Of a stretch of 53,093 bases of DNA, positions 12,104 through 18,646 are shown one piece after another (position 1 is the first letter of the stretch; each line of letters starts with the position of its first letter). Below the pieces are notes generated by a model. The model searched no databases. It was not told the origin of the DNA and saw nothing but the letters and a program-made list of their open reading frames with translations. The position numbers were made by a program, and so were the translations under genes. The stretch comes from Actinomycetes bacterium (GTDB taxonomy: Bacteria > Actinomycetota > Actinomycetes > Propionibacteriales > Propionibacteriaceae). The stretch lies in assembly GCA_021803025.1 (NCBI GenBank), contig JAJZQV010000010.1, positions 1 through 53,093 on the forward strand. The letters run 5' to 3'.

Positions 12104-12193
12104 GCGTCGCGTACCTCCTCGTCGGCGACCTTCCGATCGCCCGCTCACTGTAGGTCGAGGCAGTGACTCGGCAGGGGCTCGGTGGCAATCGTC

Positions 12194-12445
12194 TCACCGC
12201 CTTCGGCGCGACGGAATCACGCGGACTGACTCACCGGCCTCGGCGCGACCGACTCGTGGGGGTGCCTCATCGGCCTCGGCGCGACCGACTCGTGGGGGTG
12301 CCTCACCGGCCTCGGCGCGACCGACTCGTGGGGGTGCCTCACCGGCCTCGGCGCGACCGACTCGTGGGGGTGCCTCACCGGCCTCGGCGCGAACGACTCG
12401 TGGGGGTGCCTCACCGATCTCGGCGCGAACGACTCATGCGGACCT
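12194..12445. repeat. 36-bp tandem repeat (minisatellite), about 7 units
   Basis: The unit contains CTCGGCGCGACCGACTCGTG preceded by CTCACCGGC and followed by GGGGTGC. Unit starts are at 12194 (degenerate), 12230, 12266, 12302, 12338, 12374 and 12410 (degenerate). The inner copies are almost identical while the end copies have diverged, as expected for slippage or unequal crossing over. There are no spacers, so it is not CRISPR. It lies upstream of the Roadblock-like genes and downstream of the tRNA. The stretch 12104-12518 holds nothing else I can identify. Confidence 0.9.
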
Positions 12446-12724: not shown

Positions 12725-12818
12725 GTCGGTTCACCACGTTAACCCGGTAAACAGGATGTTCTCATGGCAGATCTGCCATGAGAACATCCGGTTTGCCCAC
12801 TTAACATGGTGAACCGAC
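12725..12818. repeat. 94-bp palindromic element, copy 1
   Basis: The element is palindromic over almost its whole length. The centre CATGGCAGATCTGCCATG is a perfect palindrome, ATGTTCTC/GAGAACAT and GGATG/CATCC extend it, and the outer arms GGTTCACCACGTTAA and TTAACATGGTGAACC also pair. A second copy of equal length is at 18553-18646 (81 of 94 bases equal by hand alignment). Several differences are paired changes that keep the stem. Its right end (GTGAACCGAC) is also the start of the adjacent 20-bp tandem repeat. This copy lies between divergent transcription units, so a plain terminator role is unlikely. Confidence 0.85.
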
Positions 12819-12985
12819 ACACGACCTCGTGAACCGACACACCACCTCGTGGACCGACACACCACCTCGTGAACCGACACACCACCTCGTGAACCGACAC
12901 ACGACCTCGTGAACCGACACACCACCTCGTGGACCGACAGGCGACCTCGTGAACCGACAGGCGACCTCGTGGACCGACAGGCGAC
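12811..12985. repeat. 20-bp tandem repeat (minisatellite), about 8.7 units
   Basis: The unit is GAACCGACACACCACCTCGT with minor variants (G for the second base, CAGGCG in the last units). The array begins inside the end of the 94-bp palindrome, so GAACCGAC of the palindrome is the first part of unit 1, suggesting the array grew from the element's edge. Variant types cluster toward the right end. The remaining spacer up to 13085 shows only the -10 of the DUF5318 gene. Confidence 0.9.
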
Positions 12986-13085
12986 CAACCGACGACCTTG
13001 ACGCGAGGGGCGCGGCGAGAAGCCGGGGAGATCCCTGAGGTGCTGCCCTGGAGCCCGTACAGACCGAGCGCCTACCCTGGACGCC

Positions 13086-13505
13086 ATGTGGTCCAAGCGG
13101 CAGACGGTCGACTACGCCTTGCAGCGCCGCCATGCGCTGGAGAGGCTGCGCAGTCGAGTGCGTACGCTGAGGCGTGAGGATCTCTGCGACGCCGACCCGA
13201 TGCTCATCAGGGCGGCGCTCCATCACGGAGAGCTCAGCTCCGTACGGTGCCCGGTCGGCAACTGCGGGCGGCTCGTCACGTTGAACTACACGTTCGGCGA
13301 GCAGCTCGGCCAGTACAGCGGTCGCATCAAGTCGGTGCATGAGCTTGAGGAGATGGAGAATGAGGTCGGCGAGTTCCGCGTCTGTGTCGTCGAGGTGTGC
13401 ACGGAGTGCGGCTGGAACCACATGATCACCTCCTACTTGCTCGGCGACGGCGTGAAGCGCCGGCCACCGCGCCGACAGAGGACCGTCGAGGACATCTATG
13501 GCTGA
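13086..13505 (+). CDS. DUF5318 family protein
   Basis: The 139-aa protein matches DUF5318 as I know it: N-terminal MWSxRQxVDYALxRR, a CPVGNC pair and a later CTECGWNH, suggesting a zinc-ribbon-like metal site formed by four Cys, and the EVCTECGWNHMITSYLLG ending. The gene sits directly before ponA, as Rv0049 does before ponA1 in Mycobacterium, so a role linked to cell-wall synthesis is likely but unproven. The ATG comes 7 bases after TACCCT (13073-13078): a leaderless start. Its end overlaps the ponA start by 8 bases. Confidence 0.9.
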   Translation: MWSKRQTVDYALQRRHALERLRSRVRTLRREDLCDADPMLIRAALHHGELSSVRCPVGNCGRLVTLNYTFGEQLGQYSGRIKSVHELEEMENEVGEFRVCVVEVCTECGWNHMITSYLLGDGVKRRPPRRQRTVEDIYG

Positions 13506-15720
13506 ACGCACGACCGGGGCCCGTCGAGGCAACAACGGCCCCGCCCGCGCTGCATCACCGACAACCGGTGGTTCGCGCACGACCGGAAAGACTGCCAAGA
13601 CGCCCCGACCGCGATGGCAGAGGAGGCTCCTCACGGGCCTCAAGGTGGCTACGATCGCCGTCCTCGTCATCGCCCTGCTCGGCATGGGGGGTCTCGCGAT
13701 CGCCTACCAGCGCACGAGCCTGCCCGACCCCAACGCGGCGTTCCTCACAAACAAGTCGAACGTCTACTACCGGGACGGGACGACGGTCATCGGCTCGTTC
13801 GCCGACCAGAACCGCACGTCGATCCCGTACTCCGACATGCCGCAGACCATCAAGGACGCCGTCGTCGCCGCCGAGAACCGCTCGTTCTGGACGGACAAGG
13901 GCATCTCGCCGACCGGCATCGCGCGGGCCGTGTGGGGGATCCTGCGCGGCACGAGCGCCCTGGGCGGCGGGTCGACGATCACGCAGGAGTACATCAAGAT
14001 CCTCTACCTGACAAGCGACCAGACCGTCAGCCGCAAGGCGAAGGAGATCTTGCTGGCGATCAAGATGGGCCGGTCGATGCCCAAGGAGCAGATCCTCCAG
14101 GGCTACCTCAACACCATCTACTTCGGGCGAGGCGCGTACGGGATCCAGGCCGCCGCGAAGGCGTACTTCAACGTCGACGCCAAGGACCTCACCCTGCAGC
14201 AGTCCGTCGCCCTGGCGGCGATCCTCAACTCCCCGAGCCTGTTCGACCCCGCCGACGGCGAGAAGAACGTGGCCCGGCTCACGAAGCGGTACGCGTACGT
14301 GCTCGACGGCATGGTCCAGATGGGCACGGTCACGCAGGCTCAGGCCGACGCCGCCAAGGCCCTGCCGGTCTTCCCGGACGTGCCGAAGAGCTCCCGCTAC
14401 GGGGGGCCCAAGGGGTTCCTCCTGAAGATGGTCGAGGCGGAGCTCGCTGCCGACGGCTTCGCCCCCGCGACCATCTCGGGCGGCGGTCTCCAGATCACGA
14501 CGACGTTCGACGAGAAGGCACAGGCGGCGGCCGTCGCGTCGGCGCAGAAGTACACCGAGGCCGCCGCGACAGGTGCCAGGACGAAGCAGGACCCCGCCCA
14601 GCTCCACGCTGCGATCGCGTCCGTGGCGGTGGGCAGCGGCGAGGTGCTCGCGCTGTACGGGGGGCCCGACTACCTCACGAGCTCCCGCAACTGGGCGACC
14701 ACGGACAGGCCGGCCGCATCGACGTTCAAGGCGTACGCGGTGGTGGCCGGGCTTCGCAACGGCTTCAGCCTGCGCTCCACGTTCAACGGCAACACATTCA
14801 CGCCGAGGGGCGACACCACCACGATCCGCAACGAGTTCAACAACCAGTACGGGACGGTGTCGCTCGTCAAGGCGACCGCCGACTCCATCAACACCGCGTT
14901 CGTCGACCTCACCCAGCAGATCCCGAACGGCCCGGCACAGGTGATCAAGGCCGCGAACGACGCCGGCGTGACGACCGGCGCCGGCTGGGACGCCAACAAC
15001 CGCATCGCCCTCGGCACCGCGGAGGTGAGCCCGCTCGACCAGGCGACCGGCTACGCGACGCTGGCGAACGGCGGCACGTACGTACCGACGCACGTCGTCA
15101 AGGAGGTCAAGGACTCGACGGGCAAGGTGCTCTACACGGCCAAGCCCCAGGCACAGCCGAACATCGACCCGAAGATCGCCATCGACACCACGTACGCGCT
15201 CGAGAACGTGGTCAACGAGGGTACGGGGGCGAGGGTCTCGAGCCTCGGCCGCGACATCGCCGGCAAGACGGGTACGGCCGACGTCAACGGCCATGTGGTG
15301 TCCAGCTGGTTCATCGGCTACACCAAGCAGGTGTCGACGGCCGTCATGTACGTGGCGGGTGACGGCGGCAACGGGAACCTCGACGTGTACGCGAAGAAGG
15401 GCGACGCGACGTTCTTCGGCGGTACGTACCCGGCACTGACGTGGCTCGACTACATGAAGGTGGCGACCGAGGGACAGCCGAAGCTCACGTTCGACCCGCC
15501 CGTGTACGTCAACGCGACGGCGACCCCGGCCCCGGTGACCTCCTCGCCGCCGACGCAGGTGCCCACGCCGTCGTCGGCGCCGTCGTCGGCCCCGCCGTCG
15601 TCGGCCCCGCCGCCGCCTCCGCCCCCGTCGACCAAGCCGACGCCGTCACAGAGCCCGTCGAGCAAGCCGTCTTCGTCCCCGAGCCTGGGCGGCGGCAAGC
15701 CCTCCGCATCAGCGGGGTAG
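13498..15720 (+). CDS. ponA: bifunctional class A penicillin-binding protein (transglycosylase/transpeptidase)
   Basis: The 740-aa protein polymerises and cross-links peptidoglycan outside the membrane. A basic, Thr/Gly-rich cytoplasmic tail precedes one membrane anchor (about 46-70). The GT51 transglycosylase domain has AENRSFW (catalytic Glu about 126) and GGGSTITQEY (about 157). The transpeptidase has SxxK at S408-K411 (STFK), SxN at S463-N465 (SIN) and KTGT at 590-593. From about residue 675 the tail is Ser/Pro/Thr-rich, as in mycobacterial PonA1. The ATG at 13498 lies inside the end of the DUF5318 gene (8-base overlap), so the two are translationally coupled. Confidence 0.97.
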   Translation: MAERTTGARRGNNGPARAASPTTGGSRTTGKTAKTPRPRWQRRLLTGLKVATIAVLVIALLGMGGLAIAYQRTSLPDPNAAFLTNKSNVYYRDGTTVIGSFADQNRTSIPYSDMPQTIKDAVVAAENRSFWTDKGISPTGIARAVWGILRGTSALGGGSTITQEYIKILYLTSDQTVSRKAKEILLAIKMGRSMPKEQILQGYLNTIYFGRGAYGIQAAAKAYFNVDAKDLTLQQSVALAAILNSPSLFDPADGEKNVARLTKRYAYVLDGMVQMGTVTQAQADAAKALPVFPDVPKSSRYGGPKGFLLKMVEAELAADGFAPATISGGGLQITTTFDEKAQAAAVASAQKYTEAAATGARTKQDPAQLHAAIASVAVGSGEVLALYGGPDYLTSSRNWATTDRPAASTFKAYAVVAGLRNGFSLRSTFNGNTFTPRGDTTTIRNEFNNQYGTVSLVKATADSINTAFVDLTQQIPNGPAQVIKAANDAGVTTGAGWDANNRIALGTAEVSPLDQATGYATLANGGTYVPTHVVKEVKDSTGKVLYTAKPQAQPNIDPKIAIDTTYALENVVNEGTGARVSSLGRDIAGKTGTADVNGHVVSSWFIGYTKQVSTAVMYVAGDGGNGNLDVYAKKGDATFFGGTYPALTWLDYMKVATEGQPKLTFDPPVYVNATATPAPVTSSPPTQVPTPSSAPSSAPPSSAPPPPPPPSTKPTPSQSPSSKPSSSPSLGGGKPSASAG

Positions 15721-15848
15721 CCGCTCTGAGGCAGGCCGGGTCCTGAGTGGGTGCCCGTGACTCGGGTCCCTCGCACTCGGTGCTCGGACTCTTCACGGCG
15801 GGCGCCGTGCGCCGGATCGCGGACAGGCTCTGCCCGTACGATGGCGGC

Positions 15849-17390
15849 GTGACCGCCCCGACCGTGACCGTACCCGCAGGGGAGCCCGCGGAGCGCGGCG
15901 GCTGGTCGGAGGTGATGCTGCGGCGTCTCGGCGGCCCGCTGGGTCGTCACGCGGGGTCACGGCTCGTGCTCGGGCCGGCCGTCGTCATGGTCCTCGCCAC
16001 GCTCAGCTGGCTGCTGCTCATGGCGCACCAGACCTCGTGTCGCCAGACGGACCCCACGACGTCGATCAACGCCATCGCCCGCCTGTGCTACACGGACATC
16101 CCTGTCCTGTACCAGGCGCGGGGGCTCAGCCAAGGAGCCGTCCCCTACATCACGGCTCAGTGGGAGTATCCCGTCCTGACAGGGGGCTTCGTCGAGGTTG
16201 CGCGGCGCATCACGGACGTCCTGGGCGTTCACGCCTCGCCTGACCTCAGCGGCCAGCAGGTGCTGACGAACGCGGACATCTTCTACTCCGTGTGCGCCGT
16301 GATGCTCTTCGGCTGCTTCCTCGTGCTCGTCCTGCTGCAGCTCCACATGGGGGGCCGACGCTGGTGGGCCACCAGCCTCATGGTCGCGGTCGCTCCCGTC
16401 GTCATCGCCGAGGGCCTCATCAACTGGGACATCTTCGCGGTCACCCTGACGGCTGCCGCCTTGTTCGCGTGGGGACGGAGACGGCCGTACGTCGCGGGAC
16501 TGTTCTTCGGCCTCGCCGTCGCCGCGAAGCTGTACCCGCTGTTCATCCTGGGGCCGCTGCTCCTGCTCTGCCTGCGCTCGCGGCGGCTCCGCGCCTTCGG
16601 GCAGCAGCTCGCAGCCGCGGTCGTCACGTGGGTACTCGTCAACGCACCCGTGTTCGTCGCGTCGCCCTCGGGCTGGCTGTACTTCTGGCAGTTCAACATC
16701 GACCGGGGAGCGGACCTGGGATCGATCTGGTACGTGATGAGCCTCGCCGGCCTCCGGCTGCCGAGCCCCGGCACCTGGTCGCTGCTGTTCATGCTCCTGG
16801 GCTGCCTGGGGATCGGCGCCCTGGTCTTCCTCGCCCCACGCCGCCCCCGGGTCGGGCAGGTGGCCTTCCTCGTCGTGGCGCTGTTCTTGGTAGTCAACAA
16901 GGTGTACTCGCCGCAGTACGCGCTGTGGATGCTGCCGCTTCTCGCATTGGCCCGCCCGACGTGGCGCGAATGGGCCGTCTTCAACGTCGCCGAGGTGGCG
17001 TACTACTTCGTGATCTGGGGACATCTCGCCGGCACGCTGCACCCCGGAGACGGCGGGCCGGACCGCGTGTACTGGCTGGCGGTCTTCCTCCGGATGGGTG
17101 TGAGCATCTGGCTCATGGTCGTGGTCGTCAACGACATGCTGAACCCGGGTGAGGACCCGGTGCGCGAGGACGGCGTCGACGACCCGATCGGCGGTCCGCT
17201 CGACCGCGCGGCCGACGCCTGGAGCCTGCGCCTCGTGTCGTTCGGTGCGGAGTCGCCGGCTTTGCGTCCGTCACCCTCGGGCAGCGTCGTGTACGGACCT
17301 GTCGAGGACCCCGACGGGAAGCAGTCGGGGAGACCCAGGCGTGCCCTCGTCGACGACCTGCTCGACGACGGGTCCGACCAGCCGAGGTGA
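15849..17390 (+). CDS. GT-C membrane glycosyltransferase, GT87-like (Rv0051-like position)
   Basis: The 513-aa protein has about 10-12 hydrophobic segments between residues 40 and 445 and a soluble Asp/Pro-rich C-terminus. The INWDIFAV segment and the YSPQYALWMLPL segment fit polyprenol-phosphate-dependent GT-C enzymes (DUF2029/GT87). It follows ponA, as Rv0051 follows ponA1, so it probably adds sugars, perhaps mannose, to a lipid-linked cell-envelope glycan. The GTG at 15849 follows TACGAT plus six bases, the leaderless pattern; an in-frame start 102 bases earlier would add an unlikely leader. Donor and acceptor are unknown. Confidence 0.8.
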   Translation: MTAPTVTVPAGEPAERGGWSEVMLRRLGGPLGRHAGSRLVLGPAVVMVLATLSWLLLMAHQTSCRQTDPTTSINAIARLCYTDIPVLYQARGLSQGAVPYITAQWEYPVLTGGFVEVARRITDVLGVHASPDLSGQQVLTNADIFYSVCAVMLFGCFLVLVLLQLHMGGRRWWATSLMVAVAPVVIAEGLINWDIFAVTLTAAALFAWGRRRPYVAGLFFGLAVAAKLYPLFILGPLLLLCLRSRRLRAFGQQLAAAVVTWVLVNAPVFVASPSGWLYFWQFNIDRGADLGSIWYVMSLAGLRLPSPGTWSLLFMLLGCLGIGALVFLAPRRPRVGQVAFLVVALFLVVNKVYSPQYALWMLPLLALARPTWREWAVFNVAEVAYYFVIWGHLAGTLHPGDGGPDRVYWLAVFLRMGVSIWLMVVVVNDMLNPGEDPVREDGVDDPIGGPLDRAADAWSLRLVSFGAESPALRPSPSGSVVYGPVEDPDGKQSGRPRRALVDDLLDDGSDQPR

Positions 17391-18538
17391 GGCGGGTCGA
17401 GGAGGTCGTGGTCCCCGGGGAGCGGGAGAGGGCGGTACGTCTCGGAGATGGGCCGCGCCTCGTCGTACAGGCTTGGCTGGGCAGCCGGGTCCTGCTCGCC
17501 CTCGTCCTCGTCTGGACGGTCTGGTCGACCGGGGCGACCTGGCAGGCCGCCGCGGGCAACTGGGACGTCGCCCACTTCCTGCGGATCGCCCGTGACGGCT
17601 ACGCGGCCGAGAACGAGGCGGCGTTCTTCCCCGGACTGCCGCTGCTGCTGAGGGCTGTGGGTGCGGCCGGTGTGGACATGACGGGCGGCGGCATCGCGGT
17701 CTCGGTCGTGGCGTCGGCGTTCGCCGCCTGGGCGCTGTGGCGGCTCGGCGGCCCTCGTACCGGCGTCGTCGCCGCGGTGCTCTGGCTGTTCGCGCCGACA
17801 GCCGTGTTCACGGTGGTCCCTTACACCGAGAGCATCTTCGCGGCATTCGCGTTCTGGGCCTGGCTGCGGGCCCGGGAGGGGCGGTGGCCGTGGGCCGCGG
17901 TGCTGGCCGCAGGAGCCTGCTCCGTCCGGGTGTCCGGGCTGTTCCTCCTCGTCGCGCTGGGGGTGCTGGCCCTCACCGGGTCGTACGAGGGGGACCGGCG
18001 CTGGTCGGGACGAGTCCGCGCCCTGGCCTGGCTCCTCGTGCCGGCGGCCGTCCCCGCGGCGTACGCCACGTACCTGCGGGTGACGAAGGGGTCGTGGCTC
18101 GCCTGGTACACCGCCCAGGCGGACGGGTGGGGGCGTCGGCTCACGTGGCCGTGGGACGCGTTCGCCCACACCCTCCGCGCCGTCGTGCCCGGCGCCTACG
18201 CCGACCACCCCGGCTGGGCCTGGGTGTTCCGTGGCGAGGTCGTCTCGGTCGCGGTCGGCATCGCGGTCACGGTCGCCTGCCTCGTGCTCCGCCGGTGGGC
18301 GGAAGCCACCTGGGTCGGCGTCCAGGTGGCAGCCTTCGCGACCTCCTACTGGTACATGAGCGTCAACCGGGCCGTGCTCCTGTGGTTCCCGCTGTGGCTT
18401 CTCCTCGGGTCCTTCGCCACCCGCGCGGGACGAGGCCCGACGGCGCGCCTCGCGGTCATCGCCGTGTGGGGGCTGGTCAGCACGATGCTGCTGGTCTGGT
18501 GGGCGGCGCGCTTCTTCTCCGGGCAGTGGGCGAGCTGA
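17387..18538 (+). CDS. GT-C membrane mannosyltransferase, PIG-V-like
   Basis: The 383-aa multi-span protein has the motif WDVAHFLRIARDGY (about 59-72) followed by FFPGLPLLLR, the luminal-loop pattern of PIG-V/GT76-type mannosyltransferases, where the Asp in WD is catalytic. About nine membrane segments follow. Such actinobacterial enzymes use polyprenyl-phospho-mannose to extend lipoglycans or mannosylate proteins. Its GTG overlaps the stop of the upstream GT87-like gene (GTGA), so they form one operon. The stop is 14 bases before copy 2 of the 94-bp palindrome. Confidence 0.8.
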   Translation: MRRVEEVVVPGERERAVRLGDGPRLVVQAWLGSRVLLALVLVWTVWSTGATWQAAAGNWDVAHFLRIARDGYAAENEAAFFPGLPLLLRAVGAAGVDMTGGGIAVSVVASAFAAWALWRLGGPRTGVVAAVLWLFAPTAVFTVVPYTESIFAAFAFWAWLRAREGRWPWAAVLAAGACSVRVSGLFLLVALGVLALTGSYEGDRRWSGRVRALAWLLVPAAVPAAYATYLRVTKGSWLAWYTAQADGWGRRLTWPWDAFAHTLRAVVPGAYADHPGWAWVFRGEVVSVAVGIAVTVACLVLRRWAEATWVGVQVAAFATSYWYMSVNRAVLLWFPLWLLLGSFATRAGRGPTARLAVIAVWGLVSTMLLVWWAARFFSGQWAS

Positions 18539-18552
18539 CCGCTGGAGAACCG

Positions 18553-18646
18553 CGAGGTTTACCACGTTAACCCGGTGAACTGGATGTTCTCACGGCAAAT
18601 CTGCCGTGAGAACATCCAGTTCACCCACATAACATGGTGAACCGAC
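18553..18646. repeat. 94-bp palindromic element, copy 2
   Basis: It has the same length and layout as the element at 12725-12818. The centre is CACGGCAAATCTGCCGTG and the inner arms are GGTGAACTGGATG and CATCCAGTTCACC. Compared with copy 1, a T-A pair became C-G near the centre (CAT/ATG to CAC/GTG), and A-T became G-C in the inner arm, so the stem is preserved. It sits in the 121-bp gap between two convergent genes, where it could also act as a two-way terminator. No tandem repeat follows this copy. Confidence 0.85.

What the first reader, a model, noticed from the sequence alone, without database searches (positions are those of the whole stretch)
12725..18646. Two 94-bp near-perfect palindromes with compensatory base changes
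The elements at 12725-12818 and 18553-18646 have the same length, about 86% identity and almost full-length dyad symmetry. Differences preserve pairing: a T-A pair near the centre becomes C-G (CATGGCA/TGCCATG versus CACGGCA/TGCCGTG) and an inner-arm A-T pair becomes G-C. This suggests that the folded form, not only the sequence, is under selection. Copy 1 lies between divergent units and copy 2 between convergent ones, so a simple bidirectional terminator does not explain both. I know of no named element of this sequence; it may be a mobile palindromic repeat, a nucleoid-protein site or an RNA hairpin.
Basis: partly seen in the sequence, partly recalled or inferred. Interest (0 to 1): 0.72.

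Follow-up and report, generated by a model that had tools for sequence, protein, structure and literature searches.

The report
Dispersed palindromes paired with AbiEi-nuclease gene
The two palindromes belong to a family of about thirty scattered copies that appear to be the partner sites of a single gene joining an AbiEi-type DNA-binding part to a nuclease-like part, an arrangement that recurs with different repeats in other actinobacteria and looks like a second, unrelated version of the known REPIN-RAYT partnership.

Summary
The elements are real and exactly placed, but they are 2 of 32 places in this genome; 31 complete copies share an indel-free 90-bp core. The arms do not covary: each is an independent copy of one half-site, so the claim of compensatory pairing fails. 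In two sister species a 313-aa gene lies between two copies; a third has one copy beside it; this genome keeps only its 3' end between two copies. The protein is AbiEi-like plus a C-terminus with invariant nuclease-like residues. Of the 30 best class-wide homologue loci, 30 have related repeats on both sides, against 1 of 55 control genes. Three other repeat families tested are dispersed in their own genomes. In another sister species the orthologous gene has a different flanking palindrome, and 7 of 9 dispersed elements found there are of that type. Both window copies are absent from the orthologous sites of six relatives; at least 13 of 31 sites are shared. Best reading: a REPIN-RAYT-like system with an unrelated enzyme; binding, cutting and copying are inferred.

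The parts
12725..12818 (.). Palindromic element, copy 1 (94 bp; 90-bp core 12727-12816)
   Evidence: copies 1 and 2 are the only window sites above 10 bits of the family matrix (157 and 145 bits)
18553..18646 (.). Palindromic element, copy 2 (94 bp; core 18555-18644)
12728..12747 (+). Copy 1, left outer box (columns 4-23 of alignment A2)
   Evidence: column conservation in 31 copies
12759..12768 (+). Copy 1, left inner box (columns 35-44)
12775..12784 (-). Copy 1, right inner box (mirror of left)
12796..12815 (-). Copy 1, right outer box
18556..18575 (+). Copy 2, left outer box
18587..18596 (+). Copy 2, left inner box
18603..18612 (-). Copy 2, right inner box
18624..18643 (-). Copy 2, right outer box
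12809..12979 (.). 20-bp tandem array (8.6 units) whose unit contains the outer end of copy 1 (GTGAACCGAC)
   Evidence: shorter end duplications at other copies

Best explanation
Each 94-bp palindrome is a double half-site recognised as duplex DNA by a protein that joins an AbiEi-type winged-helix region to a C-terminal nuclease-like domain. The gene sits between two such palindromes. Over evolutionary time the protein, probably by cutting and copying its own sites at a low rate, seeds new extragenic copies (the two window copies are recent ones) while old ones are kept under selection. It works like REPIN-RAYT but is built from an unrelated protein. Shown by sequence: the family, its two-box half-site, fixed length, independence of the arms, the gene between palindromes, recurrence with other repeats in other genera, co-switch of palindrome and gene, and lineage-specific insertion next to long-lived sites. 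Inferred: binding, nuclease activity, the copying step, and any benefit to the host. In this genome the gene is now broken, so the copies are probably relics of recent activity.
For: 32 places, 31 complete with the same 90-bp core. Conserved boxes with matching column profiles in both halves and no arm coupling. Gene between two copies in G002 and G003, with one copy in G004, at a locus syntenic with G001 and with the 3' remnant, itself between two copies, in G000. AbiEi_4 in 33 of 34 family members at E<=0.1, PADLOC AbiEi over residues 8-173; AbiEi binds inverted repeats at its own promoter and has a winged helix (PMC3985639, passages). E204, D237, E248, D250, K254 invariant in the 34 aligned. 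Related repeats on both sides of 30 of 30 class-wide loci examined and 21 of 25 family-wide ones (28 of 53 in that call), controls 1 of 55. Other repeat families dispersed in their own genome: 26 places in G106, 7 plus one partial in G059, 43 matches in G205. G001: orthologous gene (68%), different palindrome on both sides, and 7 of 9 dispersed elements found are of that new type (scores 46-73 to the flanking ones; old-type copies of G003 average 19). Species-wide change of column 10 in both halves. Palindrome likeness falls with protein identity (Spearman 0.69, 32 loci; not corrected for relatedness). Lineage-specific insertion: both window copies absent in 6 of 6 relatives. No relative of the query protein in phages, plasmids or viral contigs.
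Against: No movement was observed and no consistent target duplication exists (30 copies). The gene is broken in G000, yet the copies are intact. G004 has no palindrome in the 245 bp between the gene and its contig end, where G002 and G003 have one within about 50 bp. Orthologous copies are not more alike than non-orthologous ones except against G003. 4 of 25 family-wide homologues show no flanking repeats above threshold, nor do 21 of 28 genus loci, many of them distant paralogues. In G004 the spacers of own arms are more alike than expected (0.735 versus 0.661, P 0.013). The nuclease reading rests on invariant residues and on paralogues that match DUF559 and REase_MTES_1575; only 1 of 34 core members reaches DUF559 at E<=0.1, no solved structure gave a usable match and the structure prediction failed (pLDDT 35). 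The weaker conservation in G006, which lacks a close homologue, rests on 7 copies, and the 21 core positions and the matrix were derived from the other species, which favours them. Only four repeat families besides this one were searched for dispersal.
Confidence: 0.6

Rival explanations
1. The palindromes are a regulon: stationary operator sites of an AbiEi-like regulator (with a nuclease-like tail) that organise transcription or the chromosome. They are not moved by the protein and change together because the regulator's specificity changes.
For: AbiEi binds inverted repeats at its own promoter (PMC3985639, passages); in 30 orthologous pairs palindromes are 80% identical against 56% in the adjoining 60 bp; concerted species-wide changes; arms read as duplex half-sites.
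Against: Two new 94-bp sites appear whole at places where 6 of 6 relatives have none, which needs a copying process; sites lie in convergent, tandem and divergent gaps alike; catalytic-type residues are invariant.
Confidence: 0.2
2. A defence or addiction device: an AbiEi-derived nuclease whose target choice is governed or titrated by the palindromes.
For: PADLOC AbiEi models match residues 8-173 of P0001 at 1.3e-11; nuclease-like residues invariant.
Against: The palindrome-bounded unit holds one called ORF in L129 and L130, so no AbiEii partner inside it (neighbours not scanned); no relative of the query in phages, plasmids and viral contigs; same syntenic place in several species.
Confidence: 0.1
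3. Ordinary MITEs of a classical insertion sequence whose transposase is lost or elsewhere; the AbiEi-nuclease gene is a passenger.
For: Dispersed, extragenic, inverted-repeat elements with lineage-specific insertions.
Against: The same protein family is flanked by different repeats in 30 of 30 class-wide loci examined; tested repeat families go with their own gene; no target duplications; no transposase domain among 34 family members.
Confidence: 0.06
4. An RNA hairpin or terminator selected as folded RNA.
For: Near-perfect dyad, extragenic, 13 of 31 copies between convergent called genes against 10 of 43 gene pairs in the window; weak arm coupling in G004 spacers.
Against: No covariation in G000, G003, G002 and G006, no terminator-like site at the window copies, no Rfam match there, copies also between divergent genes.
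Confidence: 0.04

Closest known systems
REPIN-RAYT (REP palindromes with REP-associated tyrosine transposases)
   Same: Dispersed extragenic palindromes; a gene flanked by copies; gene kept at a syntenic place; flanking and dispersed repeats change together; not found on plasmids. The REPIN-RAYT features are from passages of PMC2817692, PMC8049555 and PMC3116915.
   Different: Protein is AbiEi-like plus nuclease-like, not a Y1/HUH transposase (no such Pfam match); elements here are long palindromes (94 bp; 125 bp in G059) or about 80-bp terminal repeats rather than REPs of 20-40 bp (size from the abstract of PMC3733652 in a search listing); arms do not covary, whereas PMC3116915 reports common compensatory changes; found in Actinomycetes.
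AbiE type IV toxin-antitoxin (AbiEi antitoxin)
   Same: AbiEi-like N-terminal region; AbiEi binds inverted repeats near its gene (PMC3985639, passages).
   Different: C-terminal nuclease-like domain, one called ORF in the unit, repeats on both sides of the gene and dispersed through the genome.
DUF559 / REase_MTES_1575 proteins with AbiEi_4 (paralogues in the same genomes)
   Same: Homologous along the length (33-34% identity); paralogues L159 and L165 match DUF559.
   Different: L159 and L165 have no flanking repeat pair (L165 has a copy of the window palindrome on one side) and lack the KYGRLLxPG insertion seen in most palindrome-associated members.
MITEs
   Same: Short, non-coding, inverted-repeat, dispersed.
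   Different: No target duplication found, fixed length, cognate gene not of a known transposase family. General features of MITEs are recalled.

Membership tests
REPIN-RAYT | Y1 (HUH) transposase, Pfam Transposase_17 | tested here: not met
   No such match among 34 family members; AbiEi_4 in 33
REPIN-RAYT | Gene flanked by two inverted copies of the repeat | tested here: met
   G002 and G003, but only one copy seen in G004; related repeats on both sides in 30 of 30 class-wide loci. A palindrome has no orientation, so 'inverted' applies only to the other families
REPIN-RAYT | Repeats dispersed in extragenic DNA | tested here: met
   32 places; of 31 complete copies 24 clear of called ORFs, 6 overlapping an ORF end by up to 20 bp, one (C132) inside a probably miscalled ORF
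REPIN-RAYT | Repeats and enzyme coevolve | tested here: met
REPIN-RAYT | Compensatory changes in the hairpin | tested here: not met
   (weak spacer excess in G004 only)
REPIN-RAYT | Enzyme copies or excises the repeat | not testable with these tools
   needs experiment or population reads
Classical MITE/IS | Target-site duplication | tested here: not met
   30 copies; counts for k 2-5 and 7 within the permutation range; k 6 gave 2 against a null maximum of 1, at an offset I take as chance
Classical MITE/IS | Ends shared with an element encoding a known transposase | tested here: inconclusive
   No transposase domain in the palindrome-bounded gene; genes beside the other copies were not scanned for transposase domains
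AbiE toxin-antitoxin | AbiEi N-terminal winged helix | tested here: met
   Pfam AbiEi_4 in 33 of 34 at E<=0.1, above the curated cut-off for L266, L284 and P0002 but below it for P0001; PADLOC
AbiE toxin-antitoxin | Adjacent AbiEii nucleotidyltransferase toxin | tested here: inconclusive
   Unit holds a single called ORF in L129 and L130; neighbours were not scanned for AbiEii
PD-(D/E)XK nuclease (DUF559/Vsr-like) | Conserved acidic/lysine active-site set | tested here: met
   E204, D237, E248, D250, K254 invariant in the 34 aligned; that they are catalytic is inference
PD-(D/E)XK nuclease (DUF559/Vsr-like) | Profile or fold match | tested here: inconclusive
   Paralogues L159 and L165 match DUF559 above its cut-off; 1 of 34 core members at E<=0.1; fold prediction failed
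Intrinsic terminator | GC-rich stem followed by T run | tested here: not met
   (window copies only)

The most novel reading that the evidence does not exclude
A second, independently evolved REPIN-RAYT-type partnership: an AbiEi-nuclease protein, spread through Actinomycetes and often kept in place, that recognises duplex palindromes, seeds new copies of them through the genome, and whose change of specificity re-seeds the genome with a new palindrome while the old set erodes.
Probability: 0.5. Interest if true: 0.88.

Novelty: categorically new. Interest (0 to 1): 0.8.

Why it matters
Long-lived palindromic repeats with a tame enzyme are known to me as one invention, REPIN-RAYT. A parallel built on an unrelated protein would show that such partnerships arise repeatedly, and would make the open question (what keeps the repeats and the enzyme in the host) testable by comparing two unrelated solutions. 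It would also give a role to a large set of actinobacterial proteins with AbiEi_4 regions now filed as antitoxins or as unknown, and explain dispersed repeats in these genomes.

Tried and rejected
Tried and dropped: an IS481-like or other IS parent (a resemblance of ends from recall only; not searched as such). RNA family and terminator. Target duplications. A reading of the half-site as a short coding stretch (positions vary like codons) was considered and set aside because both strands follow the same profile; untested. Structure prediction from three sequences gave pLDDT 35 and was not used for a fold search. PDB sequence searches gave nothing usable. NCBIfam gave no match for 6 proteins. 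Viral, plasmid and phage searches gave no relative. Literature: searches showed no paper linking AbiEi or DUF559 proteins with dispersed palindromes; only open-licence PMC papers are held, and where many papers matched (39, 19, 68, 92) I saw only the 10-15 listed. One search failed for a wrong string length and was redone. In one search minus-strand loci were read in the wrong orientation; one search replaces it, and the ORF picks are unreliable except for the plus-strand rows quoted. Rows dropped before counts: copy C190 (cut by a contig end) from the 31-copy alignment; C43a from the target-duplication test (30 copies); a contig-end gene fragment and one locus with masked bases from the 53; 13 of the 47 homologue references were not put into A4 (34 rows), and one search used 32 of those 34. 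One search used 18 of the 30 orthologous pairs, which flattered the palindromes (0.83); one search repeats it on all 30 (0.80).
Full report
THE OBSERVATION. They are not a pair: a DNA search of the window's own genome (3.37 Mb, 191 contigs) gives 32 places, one cut by a contig end. All 31 complete copies have a core of exactly 90 bp.

NO COMPENSATORY PAIRING. In the 31-copy alignment (A2) each half has two conserved boxes, an outer one (columns 4-23) and an inner one (35-44), with an 11-column variable spacer. The left and right halves follow similar profiles column by column, but the arms of one copy are no more alike than arms of different copies (0.789 versus 0.789; 907 of 2000 permutations as high). 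Pair counts agree: 85.5% standard pairs against 84.9% shuffled. The test repeated per species gives the same in G003, G002 and G006; G004 has a weak excess in the spacers (0.735 versus 0.661, P 0.013). Equality of own and cross identity is also what independent mutation of copies of one symmetrical ancestor would give; the point is that nothing couples the arms.

RELATIVES. By DNA search 6 of 7 genus genomes (own included) match; with a sequence-only profile all 7 do, plus 2 of the 140 other family genomes sampled.

A GENE BETWEEN TWO COPIES. In G002 and G003 a 313-aa ORF sits between two copies. In G004 one copy lies upstream of it, and the 245 bp between the gene and the contig end hold none. 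Flanks show that the locus is syntenic in G000, G001, G002, G003 and G004. In G000 only about 65 C-terminal codons survive between copies C175a and C175b. GC3 of the ORF is 0.72-0.74 while most neighbours called have 0.8-0.94.

THE PROTEIN. Pfam AbiEi_4 matches 33 of 34 family members at E<=0.1, below the curated cut-off for P0001 (19.4 versus 25 bits) but above it for P0002, L266 and L284. PADLOC AbiEi models cover residues 8-173 of P0001 (1.3e-11). The C-terminal third has an invariant set E204, D237, E248, D250, K254, with E272, R275, E276 and R289 (34 aligned). I read it as a PD-(D/E)XK-type nuclease because paralogues that align along the length match DUF559 and REase_MTES_1575; this is an inference. 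Structure prediction failed and the PDB gave no usable relative.

RECURRENCE. Scanning homologue loci showed other palindromes at the same place. In the orientation-corrected test 28 of 53 loci have related repeats on both sides (score above 30; the best of ten shuffles per locus gave 13-31): 21 of 25 family-wide loci and 7 of 28 genus loci, the latter including many distant paralogues. In a class-wide sample (58 of 296 genomes with a homologue at 1e-25) the 30 loci given by the tool all do (30 of 30, lowest score 31), against 1 of 55 control genes. The control genes come from the window and other loci of this genus, not from the other families. The one above threshold lies in L140 next to a palindrome copy (cause inferred). 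Dispersal was tested for four other repeat families: G106 (26 places on one chromosome; 24 show a palindrome of score 10 or more, 62 bp being the commonest length), G059 (7 places and a partial one; 125 bp in four of seven), G205 (43 matches; in 10 of 19 dispersed loci examined a second repeat lies in inverted order 7-59 bp away, four of these second repeats being weak, with one more locus overlapping itself), and G062 (6 places). In other genomes: the G106 palindrome matched 7 of 14, weakly outside G106; the G059 one matched only its own of 7; the G205 repeat matched 7 of 8.

CO-CHANGE OF GENE AND SITES. Column 10 is C in G000 (92%) and G003 (100%) and T in G002 (98%), G004 (95%) and G006 (71%), in both halves taken together (smaller set). 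In G001 the orthologous gene (68% identity) at the same locus is flanked by a different palindrome. Of 9 dispersed elements in G001 found through the profile search, 7 resemble those flanking palindromes (local scores 46-73, where old-type copies of G003 average 19) and two are old-type copies. At 21 core half-site positions G000, G003, G002 and G004 copies match 98.6-99.5%; the 7 G006 copies, from a genome without a close homologue (best 35%), match 88.4%, and their halves agree among themselves at 0.695 against 0.803-0.818. The 21 positions and the matrix came from the other species, so this comparison leans towards them. All relatives are about 82-86% identical to G000 over one ORF, so distance alone does not explain it. 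Palindrome likeness to the window consensus falls with protein identity (Spearman 0.69 over 32 loci; 0.59 over 29 below 60% identity; not corrected for relatedness).

OLD AND NEW SITES. Thirteen of 31 sites in G000 have a palindrome at the orthologous place in at least one relative (30 pairs over all species); this is a lower bound, because relatives' loci were fetched for carrying copies. In the 30 pairs the palindromes are 80% identical with 1.7% gaps while the adjoining 60 bp are 56% identical with 24.7% gaps (a subset of 18 gave 83% and 56%). Orthologous copies are nevertheless not closer to each other than to others, except against G003 (0.866 versus 0.801). The two window copies are new: no site above 20 bits at the orthologous places in six relatives (own copies score 114-170), with both flanks aligned in all six. 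At copy 2 the aligned ends of the two convergent genes overlap by 4 bp in G002 and G004 and lie 8-20 bp apart in three others; in G003 they are 136 bp apart, without a palindrome. No consistent target duplication is seen. Copies are extragenic; 13 of 31 lie between convergent called genes against 10 of 43 gene pairs in the window.

MECHANISM. Most likely the AbiEi-like region reads the boxes as duplex DNA; AbiEi of Streptococcus agalactiae has a winged helix and binds inverted repeats (PMC3985639, passages). The nuclease-like domain would open the way for a copying step of unknown chemistry. The 20-bp duplications of a palindrome end at copy 1 (8.6 units) and at a few other copies may be scars of breaks at the end of the element; that is a guess.

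COMPARISON. REPIN-RAYT has the same organisation: rayt genes flanked by two inverted REPs, coevolution of the two (PMC2817692, passages), single-copy, vertically inherited genes not seen on plasmids (PMC8049555, passages), extragenic inverted doublets (PMC3116915, passages). The present system fails membership by its protein and by the lack of covariation. I rate it categorically new by homology, and like REPIN-RAYT in working. I found no print description, of which I saw listings.

LIMITS. Most genus genomes are fragmented assemblies; no expression, binding or movement data exist here; nothing shows benefit to the host.

Noticed in passing
window 12193-12435: 36-bp tandem array (6.7 units, 92% matches) close to copy 1, a different unit from the 20-bp array at 12809-12979.
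   Followed up: no
window 12809-12979; also copies C53, C80b, C43a: Tandem or near repeats of the palindrome's outer end, with a step near 20 bp, beside about 4 of 31 copies; possibly scars of breaks or slippage at the end of the element.
   Followed up: partly
L327-L344 (G205): In an unnamed family f21 the dispersed unit is often two about 80-bp terminal repeats in inverted order with 7-59 bp between, a REPIN-like doublet rather than a solid palindrome.
   Followed up: partly
L284, L285, L286 and L274, L275, L278: Homologues in several species share the same upstream neighbour gene (alignment scores 1439-1884), so the gene seems kept in place there too.
   Followed up: partly
L155, L166, L198, L200: Homologues with long related repeats on both sides in which the scan found no strong palindrome; they may be other repeat families of the same system.
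   Followed up: no
G280: The one of 8 f21 genomes without any dispersed match to the G205 repeat has a homologue with an in-frame stop; its own repeat was not searched.
   Followed up: no
L140:6883-7986: A gene outside the AbiEi-nuclease family beside a palindrome copy, the single control above threshold; shows that neighbouring copies can mimic a unit.
   Followed up: partly
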